Positions 14,677 through 19,856 of a stretch of 43,161 nt of DNA are shown in pieces. Under the pieces are notes generated by a model that made no database searches, was not told the DNA's origin, and saw only the letters and a program-made list of their open reading frames with translations. Source of the DNA: Lachnospiraceae bacterium (GTDB lineage Bacteria > Bacillota > Clostridia > Lachnospirales > Lachnospiraceae). The stretch lies in assembly GCA_024691015.1 (NCBI GenBank), contig JAILOD010000329.1, positions 1 through 43,161 of the forward strand, given 5' to 3'. A program made the translations under genes and the position numbers. Position 1 is the first letter of the stretch, and the number at the start of each line of letters is the position of its first letter.

Positions 14677-14718
14677 AAAAAAGACCGGTATCAAACCTCG
14701 CCGTTTTTGTATCTGGTC
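14677..14718 (-). terminator. putative intrinsic terminator of the dnaD-dnaC-prs operon
   Basis: On the minus strand: imperfect hairpin GACCAGATACAAAAACGGCGAGGTTTGATACCGGTC followed by TTTTTT; overlaps the prs stop. Confidence 0.55.
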
Positions 14719-15875
14719 ACAAGAGACTGGATACGGTTGTTGGGGTTTAACAGATCGCTTATGGATGAATCATGATTTAAGGTATCGATGATAAAGGCTA
14801 TATATTTACTCAGATCGCAGGAAATATAATAGTCTTTTTCGAGAAGCTCAGGCGGCTGATAAATACAGTTTGTTGTAAGCACCTTTGTGATGATACCGTT
14901 TTCAACGGCTTCATCAAAACGGTCAAGCCCCTGGGTAAAAAGACCGAAGGTTGCCATTATAAAGATGCGGTTCGCTTTTCTGCGTTTCAGTTCTGTGGCA
15001 ACTTCGATAACGCTGTCACCCGAAGAGATCATATCGTCTATTACCAGTACATCTTTTCCTTCCACATCACTTCCGAGGAACTCGTGAGCCACGATCGGGT
15101 TCTTTCCGTTTACTACGGTTGTGTAGTCTCTTCTTTTGTAGAACATACCCATATCGAGCCCCAGAACGTTCGCAATATAGATGGCACGGCTCATGCCGCC
15201 TTCATCCGGACTTACAACCATCATGTGAGCGGCATCTATGGTGAGGTCGTTTACATGACAGAGAAGACCTTTTATGAACTGGTAGGCAGGCTGTATGGTT
15301 TCAAATCCGTTTAAGGGAATGGAGTTCTGAACTCTGGCATCATGTGCATCAAATGTAATGATGTTGTCAACGCCCATTTTCACAAGCTCCTGAAGAGCGA
15401 TCGCACAGTCTAACGACTCGCGGGAGCTTCTTTTATGCTGACGGCCTTCGTACAGGAAAGGCATTATAACCGTAATACGGCGTGCCTTACCACCGACGGC
15501 GGCGATTATTCTTTTAAGATCCTGATAATGATCATCCGGAGACATGTGATTGTCACGCCCGCACAGCCTGTAGGTCTGGGAATAATTACAGATATCCACC
15601 AATAGAAACAGATCCATTCCTCTGATGGACTCGTTTATGGCGCCCTTGGCTTCGCCGGAACCAAACCTGGAAATAGTGGCACTTATAAGATAAGAATCAC
15701 GCTGGTACCCTGCAAAAGCAAGAGTGTTCTTGTGTTCGTTCTCTCTTTCGGTACGCCAGTTAACCAGATACTGATCAACCATTTCCCCAAGCTTTCGACA
15801 GCCGACCAGAGGGATAACACCGAGCGTGCCCACCGGGATGGTTTCAAGTTTACGTTTTCCTGCATGTACTGACAT
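14691..15875 (-). CDS. prs: ribose-phosphate pyrophosphokinase (long form)
   Basis: PRPP synthetase/phosphoribosyltransferase fold; VLVIDDMISSGDSVIEVATELKRR, RITVIMPFLYEGRQHKR. ORF opens with GTG at 15887; ATG at 15875 chosen as likely start. Confidence 0.88.
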   Translation of the reverse strand: MSVHAGKRKLETIPVGTLGVIPLVGCRKLGEMVDQYLVNWRTERENEHKNTLAFAGYQRDSYLISATISRFGSGEAKGAINESIRGMDLFLLVDICNYSQTYRLCGRDNHMSPDDHYQDLKRIIAAVGGKARRITVIMPFLYEGRQHKRSSRESLDCAIALQELVKMGVDNIITFDAHDARVQNSIPLNGFETIQPAYQFIKGLLCHVNDLTIDAAHMMVVSPDEGGMSRAIYIANVLGLDMGMFYKRRDYTTVVNGKNPIVAHEFLGSDVEGKDVLVIDDMISSGDSVIEVATELKRRKANRIFIMATFGLFTQGLDRFDEAVENGIITKVLTTNCIYQPPELLEKDYYISCDLSKYIAFIIDTLNHDSSISDLLNPNNRIQSLVTRYKNGEV

Positions 15876-15883
15876 TGGTATTC

Positions 15884-16834
15884 TCACTTTCTTAATCTAA
15901 TATCCGCGCTTTTGAACATATATAAATCCGAAGTGCTCAAAAGCCTTGAAAAGGAACGCTCCGAATAGCTTGATTTAATCTTTTCCAATGAAAGATTGCT
16001 GGATATGATGACAGGATGCTTTCTTATCATCCGTTCATTCAGTATTGTAAAAAACTGTGAGCGCACCAGTGAATTGGGGAGCTCTGTGCCGAGATCGTCG
16101 ATTATAAGTACATCGCAAGTATAAAGATCCTCGTGCAATTGGGCACTGTCAATTGCATTGGTCTTACCGAAGGTTGCGTCAGACAGGAGCCTGAACAGAT
16201 TGAACGACGAAAAATACAGGCAATTAACGCCCTTGTCCAGAAGACCTTTTACTATACAGTTGGTCATAAATGTCTTGCCGCTTCCCACAGGCCCCAAAAA
16301 CAGGAGGCTGCCGGAGTCTTCGGAGAAGTTTTTAACGTATTCTGCCGCTCCATTATATACTTTTTGCATATCGGGAACAACATCGGGAGAGTAAATGTCA
16401 ATATTAAATTTTTCGAAATTTTCGTCCTTCAGTATTTCCGTAATATTTGATTGATCATATTTAACGTGGGCTATCCGCTTCTTTAAACAGGCACATCTCT
16501 CGTTTCCGATATAGCCCGTATCCTTACATAAAGGGCAGTTGTATATGGGTGAGAGATAATCCTCCGGAAAGCCGTTTTGTTTAAGAAGAGCTTTTTTCTT
16601 TGCGGAGAGATCTTCGATCTTGCGGCTTACATCCTTTAAGGCGTTTTCATCTCCTGCTATAAAGTTTTTTGCGGAGGAGAGAGCCAGGTCGCGGATCTCG
16701 TCAGAAAGTGCCGAAAAGCCGGAAATCTTCTGTTCAACTTCTCTGACTCTTGCTTCATGGGTGTTTTCGTTATGAAAGCGGGTGACCTGGTATTCGTGCA
16801 TTATATCGTTGTATAAACTGGTTGAGAGATTCAT
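15884..16834 (-). CDS. dnaI: DnaC/DnaI-type replicative helicase loader (AAA+ ATPase)
   Basis: 316 aa; Zn-type CPLCKDTGYIGNERCACLKKR, Walker A LGPVGSGKTF, Walker B VLIIDDLGTE, IISSNLSLEKI. Confidence 0.92.
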   Translation of the reverse strand: MNLSTSLYNDIMHEYQVTRFHNENTHEARVREVEQKISGFSALSDEIRDLALSSAKNFIAGDENALKDVSRKIEDLSAKKKALLKQNGFPEDYLSPIYNCPLCKDTGYIGNERCACLKKRIAHVKYDQSNITEILKDENFEKFNIDIYSPDVVPDMQKVYNGAAEYVKNFSEDSGSLLFLGPVGSGKTFMTNCIVKGLLDKGVNCLYFSSFNLFRLLSDATFGKTNAIDSAQLHEDLYTCDVLIIDDLGTELPNSLVRSQFFTILNERMIRKHPVIISSNLSLEKIKSSYSERSFSRLLSTSDLYMFKSADIRLRK

Positions 16835-16840
16835 ATTTCC

Positions 16841-18013
16841 TCACTGATTCTTTACAAATTTCTTTTCAAGAGCGTTGAAATCATAATCGCGTTCATTGAA
16901 ATTCTTAAATTTATCGGGCGGATCCTGTTTTGTATTCTGCTTTGAGACGGCCGGCCCGATGCTTGCTTTGCGGGCTTCGTCAGAGCGTGTAACGTCATCG
17001 GGAGTCCGTATGTTTTCCTTTTTCCAGTTGGAAAGCATGGTATTTGCATATTTGAAGCTGGCGCTTCCGGTATTTATAAGGGTTCTGTCTGCTGCAAGCA
17101 GGATGATATCCATTCCGAAGCCCAGGTCGTTTTTCCAGTATTTAAAGTATTTCAGCTCCTCGCTGCCAAGATCCCTGCCCTTGATCCCAAAGGCCTTTTT
17201 TAAAGAGGCAACATCACCTGTATTAAATGAAGAGGTACGTTCCTTAGCCTGTTCAACGGTAAGTACGCCATCCTCGTACCAGGCGGTTGCTACGGATTTG
17301 ATGTAATGCATACTGGAATGGCCGTTATCCGCACAATATTCCACAAGGTACTCTATAAGATTTGCGGGAAGCTTTAAGGTGTCATACATATATAATATGG
17401 TATTTGTTTCGGGCAAAGTAAGAGGCCTTCCGAAATAGCCTTTTGTAATGAAGATGATCTCCTGTATGTCATCCTGGCTTGTAAAGTCGTTTATCTGATC
17501 CTTGGTGTAGAACTGTGTGGGAGACGAAACAACGGATTCCACACGCGGAGCGGCTTTATGGGCTTTCTCCTCTGCATGAATTTGAGGCTCTGCAGGGACT
17601 TTCACTGTATCATAGCCTATTCCCGGAGAGCTTTGCATGGGAGAAACCGTAGCGATATCAGCCCTGAAAGCCGGTGCAATGGATGTAGCCACAGTGCTCA
17701 GCGGAGAAGGTGAAGCCGCAGGGGTATTTACGGGGTCGATAAGCGAAATTGCGCAAAGAGAGCCGTTATTGTATTGAAGAGAAAGAAGCCCCATGCGGTG
17801 CCAGTAATCCAAGGCACGCGAAATATCGCGCTCGGAGAAGTTAAGGTCATCTGCTGCCGAGCCGATGGAAAATGAGCCACCGGGAAGGTTTCTCAGTAAA
17901 TAGAGGTAGATCTTCACCTGGGCTTCATTGGCATCCTTTATGTAATTATCGATAAAATAATTGGGCACAGAGGTATTGCTGTTCGCCGTGCCGCGAATAG
18001 AGATATTGTTCAC
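16841..18013 (-). CDS. DnaD/DnaB-type replication initiation protein
   Basis: 390 aa; N-terminal winged-helix-like segment and DnaD-type domains (ITKGYFGRPLTLPETNTILYMYDTLKLPANLIEYLVEYCADNG...SMHYIKSVATAWYEDGV); immediately upstream of the helicase loader. Confidence 0.88.
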   Translation of the reverse strand: MNNISIRGTANSNTSVPNYFIDNYIKDANEAQVKIYLYLLRNLPGGSFSIGSAADDLNFSERDISRALDYWHRMGLLSLQYNNGSLCAISLIDPVNTPAASPSPLSTVATSIAPAFRADIATVSPMQSSPGIGYDTVKVPAEPQIHAEEKAHKAAPRVESVVSSPTQFYTKDQINDFTSQDDIQEIIFITKGYFGRPLTLPETNTILYMYDTLKLPANLIEYLVEYCADNGHSSMHYIKSVATAWYEDGVLTVEQAKERTSSFNTGDVASLKKAFGIKGRDLGSEELKYFKYWKNDLGFGMDIILLAADRTLINTGSASFKYANTMLSNWKKENIRTPDDVTRSDEARKASIGPAVSKQNTKQDPPDKFKNFNERDYDFNALEKKFVKNQ

Positions 18014-18176
18014 TGTTTTTTCCGTCTTAATGTTTTGTGTTACGATTCATTGGTCCAAAGGACAGATGAACTGTAACTGTTTTATTTCTTTTCCCGTGAG
18101 GATTATAGCATAATGACGTCTTAAATCAAACAGTAAATTTGCCTGAAAGTGGCTTAAAATGGGGATTTGCGCGATA

Positions 18177-18292
18177 TGTGGATGAGGTGGATAATGTGGA
18201 CAAAAAATTTATTGAAAGCATTTTTGCCTTAAAAGATAACCCACATTTATCCCGACCTGAAAAGTCGAAATAAATGTGGATATTGTGGATAA
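18177..18292. promoter_or_regulatory. cluster of DnaA-box-like 9-mers upstream of the dnaD-dnaC operon
   Basis: TGTGGATGA (18177-18185), GGTGGATAA (18186-18194), TGTGGACAA (18195-18203), TGTGGATAT (18275-18283), TGTGGATAA (18284-18292); the last is the exact complement of TTATCCACA, the others have one mismatch. Confidence 0.75.
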
Positions 18293-19681
18293 TTATTTTT
18301 TAACCAACGCATGGCCGATTTTGTCAACATCTCCGGCACCTATGGTTATCAACAGATCTCCGTTGACACAATTTTTTTTCAAAAAATTTTCTATTTCCTC
18401 AAAAGAGGGGAAATAATAGGCGTCTATACCCTTATCTTTGGCTTTTTCGGCAAGCAGCTCGGAGCTTACTCCGAGAGTGTCGGTTTCGCGGGCGGCATAG
18501 ATATCGGCCATAACAAGATGGTCCGTAAGAGTGAAGGCATCCACGAAATCATCCAGAAGAGCCTTTGTCCTGGTGTAAGTATGGGGTTGAAAAACGGCCC
18601 AGATGCTGTTGTGGGTGCGTTTTGAAGCGGCTGTTAAGGTGGCTTTTATCTCAGTCGGGTGATGAGCGTAGTCATCAATGACCGTTACGTTTTCGTTGGC
18701 GGCCATAGGACCCAATACCTCGAAACGTCTTTTGGTGCCGGTGAAAGAAGACAGACCGGCGATTATGTCCTTCTCCGGGGCTTCCGAAAAATGGGCGGCG
18801 GCTGCTGCGGCCAGGGAATTTCCTATATTATGCTCTCCAGGCACCATCAGAGATATCCTTAACGGAGAATCGCCGATCCCGTTAAGATCAAATTCGGCAC
18901 AGCCGTTTTCGCCATAGGAGATATTGTCTGCATAAACATCGAAGCTTTTGTTCAGCCCGTAGGTAATGACCTTGCATTTCAACCCGTCTGTTATATAGGA
19001 TATATTTTCCACCTCACCGTTTATTATTAGAACACCGTCGTCCGGGAGAAGACGGGCAAATTCCCTGAAGGAGTGGCGGATGTCATCGAGATCCTTAAAG
19101 AAATCCAGGTGATCGGCTTCTATATTAAGTATGATTCCGATCTTCGGATTCAAACTTAAGAAGGAATTGGTGTATTCACAGGCTTCCGTAATGAAAATGT
19201 CACGACCGCCCGTGCGGAAATTTCCGTTTATCGAAGGAAGGATGCCTCCTACGGAAATCGTCGGATCTGAGCCTGAAATAAGCATGATCTCGGATATCAT
19301 GGATGTGGTGGTTGTTTTACCATGTGTGCCCGAAATTGCGATGGGAATGCGGTAATTTTGCATAACCGAACCTAAAAACTCGGCTCTCGTAACCTTTGGC
19401 AGACCTTTTTGCTCCACAGCCATGAATTCGGGATTATCCGGGTGGATTGCAGCAGTGTATACTACGAGATCAATATCATCGGTGATATTTTCGGCTTTCT
19501 GAGGAGTGTTGATCACGGCACCCATTTCGGCAAGCTTTTTTGTGAGGTCGCTTTCATCCCTGTCCGAGCCGGATACCGTAAACCCGTTTTTCAGAAGGAG
19601 TTCAGCCAGACCGCTCATGCTGATGCCGCCTATGCCTATAAAATGTATATGCTTCTTTGAATTGAAATCGATCTTTTCCAT
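18293..19681 (-). CDS. murC: UDP-N-acetylmuramate--L-alanine ligase
   Basis: HFIGIGGISMSGLAELL, ISGTHGKTTTTSMI, DDYAHHPTEIKATL. ORF open to 19702; ATG at 19681 considered likelier. Confidence 0.97.
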   Translation of the reverse strand: MEKIDFNSKKHIHFIGIGGISMSGLAELLLKNGFTVSGSDRDESDLTKKLAEMGAVINTPQKAENITDDIDLVVYTAAIHPDNPEFMAVEQKGLPKVTRAEFLGSVMQNYRIPIAISGTHGKTTTTSMISEIMLISGSDPTISVGGILPSINGNFRTGGRDIFITEACEYTNSFLSLNPKIGIILNIEADHLDFFKDLDDIRHSFREFARLLPDDGVLIINGEVENISYITDGLKCKVITYGLNKSFDVYADNISYGENGCAEFDLNGIGDSPLRISLMVPGEHNIGNSLAAAAAAHFSEAPEKDIIAGLSSFTGTKRRFEVLGPMAANENVTVIDDYAHHPTEIKATLTAASKRTHNSIWAVFQPHTYTRTKALLDDFVDAFTLTDHLVMADIYAARETDTLGVSSELLAEKAKDKGIDAYYFPSFEEIENFLKKNCVNGDLLITIGAGDVDKIGHALVKK

Positions 19682-19856
19682 ATTAAGATAAAAATCCTCC
19701 ATGTATTGGTATATTTATTATTATTTATAGTCTTAAAGCTTACAAAATACAAGGTGTCTATTTAGCTATATTTAAAAATTGTACACAATATCTTGTATGA
19801 ATTATGTGCATATTGCAATAAAAAGATGCGAGAATAAACATAAATTTCTAAAAATA

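What the first reader, a model, noticed from the sequence alone, without database searches (positions are those of the whole stretch)
18177..18292. Five same-orientation DnaA-box-like 9-mers in back-to-back tandem groups upstream of the DnaD-DnaI helicase-loader operon
Seen directly: three contiguous 9-mers (TGTGGATGA GGTGGATAA TGTGGACAA) and, 71 bp away, two more contiguous (TGTGGATAT TGTGGATAA). One is the exact DnaA box complement and four have one mismatch; all have the same orientation with zero spacing within groups. Two weaker two-mismatch sites (18237-18245, 18247-18255) lie between in the opposite orientation. The cluster sits between the murC stop and the dnaD start. Inference: DnaA may control helicase-loader expression, or this may be a DnaA titration/secondary loading site.
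Basis: partly seen in the sequence, partly recalled or inferred. Interest (0 to 1): 0.72.

Follow-up and report, generated by a model that had tools for sequence, protein, structure and literature searches.

The report
DnaA-box switch before helicase-loader genes
In a large group of gut and rumen bacteria (Lachnospiraceae and sister families), binding sites for DnaA, the protein that starts chromosome copying, sit in two tight arrays before the genes for its partner that loads the copying machinery, which suggests that DnaA switches those genes on or off; this predicted control has not been tested experimentally.

Summary
In detail: five same-strand DnaA-box 9-mers in two zero-spaced groups (18177-18203, 18275-18292), never matched in 1000 simulated windows. 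All lie on the coding strand of murC and dnaD. The arrays are conserved across Lachnospiraceae and sister families. In 118 murC-neighbouring loci, 88 have a box directly after the murC stop and 69 have two in tandem; permuted motifs average 0.25. In an unbiased search, 55 of 89 perfect tandem 18-mers in 48 genomes lie upstream of dnaD. Upstream of murC, 1 of 72 loci has a tandem; downstream, 54 of 72. The promoter-proximal array ends mostly 49, 59, 69 or 79 bp (69 here) before an extended -10 promoter, roughly one helical turn apart. GC skew in a complete relative flips at dnaA, not here, so this is not the chromosome origin there. Best reading: DnaA, as a transcription factor, controls the dnaD-dnaI-like-prs operon, most likely by activation, behind a terminator that insulates it from murC. 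DnaA as regulator of replication genes is known; this order-wide architecture appears undescribed. Binding and sign of regulation are untested.

The parts
18284..18292 (-). DnaA box 1 of the upstream array (group I), exact TTATCCACA, directly after the murC stop codon
   Evidence: box within 12 bp of the murC stop in 60/80 named relatives; <=1 mismatch at this position in 88/118 relatives
18275..18283 (-). DnaA box 2 of group I, ATATCCACA; its 3' seven bases form the base of the 5' arm of the murC terminator
   Evidence: <=1 mismatch in 78/118 relatives
   Evidence: (z = -5.2); box 2 paired in the minimum-energy fold in 44/99 relatives, 37 of them with a T-rich tail
18177..18203 (-). promoter-proximal array (group II): three zero-spaced DnaA boxes TTGTCCACA-TTATCCACC-TCATCCACA
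   Evidence: conserved 2-3-box array in relatives
18102..18129 (-). predicted promoter: -35-like TTGATT (18124-18129), 16-bp spacer, extended -10 TGCTATAAT (TATAAT 18102-18107); 69 bp from the last box of group II
   Evidence: TATGCTATAAT-like element conserved at box distances of mostly 49, 59, 69 or 79 bp
16841..18013 (-). dnaD-family gene (390 aa, DnaB_2/DnaD domain), first gene of the controlled operon
   Evidence: PF07261 E=1e-39; TIGR01446 above cut-off
15884..16834 (-). DnaI/DnaC-like AAA+ helicase-loader gene (316 aa; PRK06835 family), 6 bp after dnaD
   Evidence: NF005304 above cut-off; below the DnaI equivalog cut-off (60 vs 228 bits)
14691..15887 (-). ribose-phosphate pyrophosphokinase (prs) gene, overlapping the loader gene by 4 bp; likely third gene of the operon
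18293..19702 (-). murC, upstream neighbour on the same strand
   Evidence: TIGR01082 above cut-off

Best explanation
The murC-dnaD intergenic region is a DnaA-responsive control region of the dnaD - DnaI-like loader - prs operon. Shown by sequence: murC ends in a terminator-like hairpin, so dnaD probably depends on its own extended -10 promoter; a zero-spaced array of 2-3 DnaA boxes stands upstream of that promoter at distances that vary in roughly one-helical-turn steps; a second tandem pair lies at the murC stop codon and partly forms the terminator arm. Inferred: DnaA binds both arrays cooperatively and, from the promoter-proximal array, contacts RNA polymerase and activates dnaD transcription. 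The upstream pair nucleates or stabilises the complex and may add to blocking read-through from murC. Supply of the DnaA partner DnaD and of the helicase loader would then follow the pool of free DnaA. Repression through a DnaA filament growing towards the promoter is the main alternative sign.
For: Conservation far beyond chance: box 1 at the murC stop in 88/118 loci, box 2 in 78, both in 69, against means of 0.25 and 0.13 (maxima 9 and 7) for permuted motifs. Independent named genomes: group I in 60/80, group II in 62/80. Unbiased search: 55 of 89 perfect tandem 18-mers, in 36 of 48 genomes, lie upstream of dnaD on its strand. Neighbouring-region control: tandem boxes in 1/72 loci upstream of murC against 54/72 downstream. 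Promoter geometry: distances from last box to -10 cluster near 49, 59, 69-71 and 79 bp while the offset of group II from murC ranges widely; periodicity R=0.57 near 10 bp, 0 of 20000 uniform draws as strong. No box overlaps the -35 or -10 in the window, which suits activation. Hairpin with T-rich tail. The genome carries dnaA with its box-binding domain. DnaA is an established transcription factor (PMC8203912; PMC4447404).
Against: No binding or expression data exist here, so the sign (activation or repression) is inferred. Four of the window's five boxes have one mismatch. Some species of the same genus lack recognisable boxes (L009, L012, L013, L015, L019). The helical-turn periodicity is partly confounded by the 9-bp register of the boxes (R=0.50 at period 9). 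The -35 is moderately better than random, so the promoter may have activity without an activator.
Confidence: 0.6

Rival explanations
1. DnaA represses the operon: DnaA nucleates at the two arrays and a filament or a loop between them reaches the promoter, shutting off loader synthesis when free DnaA is high (negative feedback, as for dnaA autoregulation).
For: Two separated arrays suit looping or cooperative spreading; negative autoregulation is the best-known DnaA promoter action (PMC8203912); same conservation data.
Against: No box overlaps the -35, -10 or start in the window; the last box stands about 70 bp from the -10 in many lineages; the spacing between the arrays itself is variable.
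Confidence: 0.25
2. The cluster is mainly a DnaA titration or DnaA-nucleotide-exchange locus (datA/DARS/B. subtilis DnaA-box-cluster-like), and the neighbouring gene is incidental.
For: High box density; dnaD lies within roughly 50-500 kb of dnaA on the same contig in six of seven relatives compared (46-274 kb in five, 471 kb in one).
Against: Conserved linkage to one promoter and near-fixed box-promoter distance; 1.26 Mb away in G114; only 5 boxes.
Confidence: 0.1
3. A secondary or true replication origin.
For: DnaA boxes next to helicase-loader genes.
Against: GC skew in complete relative G082 changes sign at dnaA (about 1.436 Mb) and not at dnaD (1.676 Mb); box arrangement differs from the dnaA-linked regions of relatives.
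Confidence: 0.02
4. The box-like sequences are a by-product of the murC terminator stem or of coding constraint and bind nothing.
For: Box 2 forms the terminator arm in 37-44 of 99 loci; a TTATCAACA inside murC is conserved, probably through codon constraint.
Against: Box 1 and group II lie outside the hairpin; box 2 is kept in many loci without the hairpin; the exact consensus in tandem is repeated in distant families.
Confidence: 0.03

Closest known systems
Bacillus subtilis DnaA regulon promoters (DnaA-box clusters such as sda; replication-stress response)
   Same: DnaA-box groups upstream of promoters, outside oriC; genes responding to replication inhibition had at least two potential DnaA sites in their promoters (PMC13220808; PMC12448304). 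From memory, not checked here: the B. subtilis dnaB-dnaI operon is among the DnaA-responsive genes.
   Different: Here the target is dnaD with a DnaI-like gene; the boxes are zero-spaced head-to-tail arrays in two groups, one embedded in the upstream gene's terminator; the arrangement is conserved across an order.
Caulobacter crescentus DnaA regulon (predicted boxes upstream of dnaB helicase and dnaQ)
   Same: DnaA controls replication-machinery genes as a transcription factor (PMC8203912).
   Different: Different phylum and gene; no tandem array or terminator overlap is mentioned in the passage read.
dnaA promoter autoregulation
   Same: DnaA boxes upstream of a replication-initiation gene.
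   Different: Target is the loader operon; promoter-distal position suggests activation rather than occlusion.
E. coli datA/DARS and oriC
   Same: Clusters of DnaA boxes.
   Different: No origin skew in the relative tested; linked to one promoter at near-fixed distances; no IHF/Fis arrangement tested.

Membership tests
DnaA-regulated promoter (DnaA as transcription factor) | two or more DnaA boxes in the promoter region | tested here: met
   five boxes; conserved
DnaA-regulated promoter (DnaA as transcription factor) | box conservation and position linked to the promoter across relatives | tested here: met
DnaA-regulated promoter (DnaA as transcription factor) | DnaA binds the site in vitro or in vivo | not testable with these tools
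   needs footprint, IDAP-seq or ChIP-seq
DnaA-regulated promoter (DnaA as transcription factor) | transcription changes with DnaA level or box mutation | not testable with these tools
   needs reporter or RNA-seq
oriC / chromosome origin | GC-skew sign change at the site | tested here: not met
   relative G082: change at dnaA, same positive sign on both sides of dnaD
oriC / chromosome origin | adjacent unwinding region (DnaA-trios, AT-rich) | not tested
   no formal trio scan was made
datA/DARS-like DnaA-activity locus | changes DnaA-ATP/ADP level or initiation timing | not testable with these tools
   needs genetics and biochemistry
intrinsic terminator (murC) | stable stem followed by a T-run after the stop codon | tested here: met
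   37/99 relatives by the pairing-plus-T-tail criterion
DnaI helicase loader (second gene) | NCBIfam DnaI equivalog cut-off | tested here: not met
   60 bits against cut-off 228; passes PRK06835 ATP-binding family at 311 bits

The most novel reading that the evidence does not exclude
An order-wide feed-forward circuit: DnaA, from helically phased zero-spaced arrays, both reinforces termination of murC (a DnaA box doubles as the terminator arm) and activates its own partner DnaD, the helicase loader and PRPP synthesis, so that initiator level sets loader supply and ties replication to nucleotide precursor production.
Probability: 0.2. Interest if true: 0.82.

Novelty: new variant of a known kind. 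Interest (0 to 1): 0.6.

Why it matters
How loader supply is matched to the initiator is little studied outside Bacillus and E. coli. An arrangement kept across Lachnospiraceae and sister families, dominant among gut and rumen bacteria, gives a specific, cheap test: mutate the arrays and measure dnaD expression and initiation. It also gives a natural set of promoters with different box-promoter distances for asking whether DnaA activates by direct, face-of-helix contact with RNA polymerase.

Tried and rejected
Direct dnaD search in named genomes found nothing confirmed; murC was used instead. Outside the order (class-level search) none of the tandem loci fetched had a recognisable murC or dnaD; only two same-family loci did, so the linkage appears restricted to this order, though a diverged dnaD could be missed. 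Origin reading rejected by GC skew. Hairpin-only reading rejected because many loci keep box 2 without the hairpin. A third conserved stretch between group II and the -35 (AAACGCCCATTTTACGCGGTTT-like in several close relatives; dyad score only modestly above shuffles) was not resolved. Phasing between the two arrays was not resolved. Four B. subtilis papers on DnaA target genes (Hoover 2010, Ishikawa 2007, Washington 2017, Goranov 2005) were looked up and are not held, so the comparison with the B. subtilis dnaB-dnaI operon rests on memory.

Full report
What is there. The window is from a Lachnospiraceae genome (murC relatives in named genomes are nearly all Lachnospiraceae; own assembly 2.6 Mb in 340 contigs). 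On the - strand run murC (18293-19702), dnaD (16841-18013), a DnaI/DnaC-like AAA+ loader gene of the PRK06835 family (15884-16834) and a ribose-phosphate pyrophosphokinase gene (14691-15887). Short gaps (6 bp, then a 4-bp overlap) suggest one operon from dnaD onward. The 279 bp between murC and dnaD hold five DnaA boxes on the coding strand: TTATCCACA-ATATCCACA directly after the murC stop (group I) and TTGTCCACA-TTATCCACC-TCATCCACA 71 bp further (group II). Chance does not explain them: 1000 simulated windows never had more than 3 same-strand boxes in 116 bp, and only one had a single tandem pair.

Terminator and promoter. Between the arrays lies a 20-bp terminator-like hairpin (18239-18281, tail TATCTTTTAA; folding z-score -5.2). 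Its 5' arm starts inside box 2. In relatives the same design recurs, e.g. ATCCACA...TGTGGATTTTTT: box 2 is paired in 44 of 99 loci, 37 of these with a T-rich tail. Elsewhere the box is kept without the hairpin, so the hairpin does not explain the box. Downstream of group II is a promoter-like TTGATT-16-TGCTATAAT; a TATGCTATAAT-like element recurs in relatives.

Conservation. dnaD was found in 141 of 145 relatives. Upstream regions were collected and scanned. Of 118 with murC directly upstream, 88 have a box (at most one mismatch) at the murC stop, 78 a second 9 bp on, and 69 both; permuted motifs give means of 0.25 and 0.13 and maxima of 9 and 7. The sample spans many genera of the family and other families of the order. 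In 80 independent named loci, 79 have dnaD next; 60 have group I, 62 group II, 50 both. These rows are related genomes, so the counts are not independent events. Control: tandem boxes lie within 450 bp upstream of murC in 1 of 72 loci, downstream of murC in 54 of 72. Unbiased: of 89 exact TTATCCACATTATCCACA sites in 145 relatives, 55, in 36 of 48 genomes with any site, are upstream of dnaD on its strand. The reversed-pattern control gave none. Some species of the same genus lack recognisable boxes.

Geometry. The distance from the last box to the -10 hexamer clusters near 49, 59, 69-71 and 79 bp, 69 in the window, although the offset of group II from murC varies widely. Taking each distance once per genus (44 values within 40-95 bp), periodicity near 10 bp has R=0.57, never reached in 20000 uniform draws; period 9, the box register, gives 0.50, so gain or loss of a box may contribute. 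No box in the window overlaps the core promoter. Near-fixed distance on one helix face is what direct contact with RNA polymerase would require; hence activation is preferred, with repression as the main rival. That step is inference.

Not an origin. In complete relative G082 the GC skew is negative up to dnaA (about 1.436 Mb) and mostly positive beyond, including both sides of dnaD (1.676 Mb). Boxes near dnaA in relatives are of mixed orientation and mostly spaced, unlike these arrays. dnaD lies 46-274 kb from dnaA in five relatives, 471 kb in one and 1.26 Mb in another, so a titration role favoured by origin proximity is possible but not specific.

Known background. DnaA is an established transcription factor; predicted boxes precede dnaB helicase in Caulobacter (PMC8203912), and B. 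subtilis genes responding to replication inhibition carry promoter DnaA sites (PMC13220808). Searches of the held library found no description of DnaA control of dnaD in Lachnospiraceae; the library lacks most subscription papers. From memory, the B. subtilis dnaB-dnaI operon is DnaA-responsive; this was not verified. The system is therefore filed as a new variant of DnaA-regulated replication genes, with regulation predicted and not shown.

Noticed in passing
L142, L146, L149, L153, L154, L155, L160, L163; own genome L003:1500-1570 (G000:C84): A second recurring DnaA-box element, a single box and a zero-spaced pair mostly 53 bp apart (start to start), lies upstream of hpf (ribosome hibernation factor) in several genera of the order; similar elements precede trmB (L152, L161), a DUF1858 gene (L157, L162) and, in the window's own genome, a chemotaxis-receptor gene. 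Only 3 of 30 close relatives have a tandem upstream of hpf. Gene names here are by sequence inspection, not by a family search.
   Followed up: partly
L156:1446-1879 (G063:C132): About 25 DnaA boxes in about 430 bp, in both orientations and partly in tandem; possibly an origin or a DnaA-titration cluster.
   Followed up: no
window 18130-18176: In several close relatives the stretch between group II and the -35 resembles AAACGCCCATTTTACGCGGTTT; a possible second operator, dyad symmetry only modestly above shuffles.
   Followed up: partly
L149, L155, L157, L158, L160, L162 downstream of the tandem boxes: A GAACNNNNGTTTTGT-like stretch followed by TATAAT-like sequence, faintly resembling a LexA box, follows the second element (read by eye).
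   Followed up: no
L009, L012, L013, L015, L019: Species of the same genus whose murC-dnaD region is shorter (150-194 bp) and has no box with at most one mismatch: natural losses useful as comparisons.
   Followed up: no
window 14691-15887: A PRPP-synthetase gene overlaps the loader gene by 4 bp, suggesting co-expression of replication loading and nucleotide precursor supply; its conservation in the operon was not tested.
   Followed up: no
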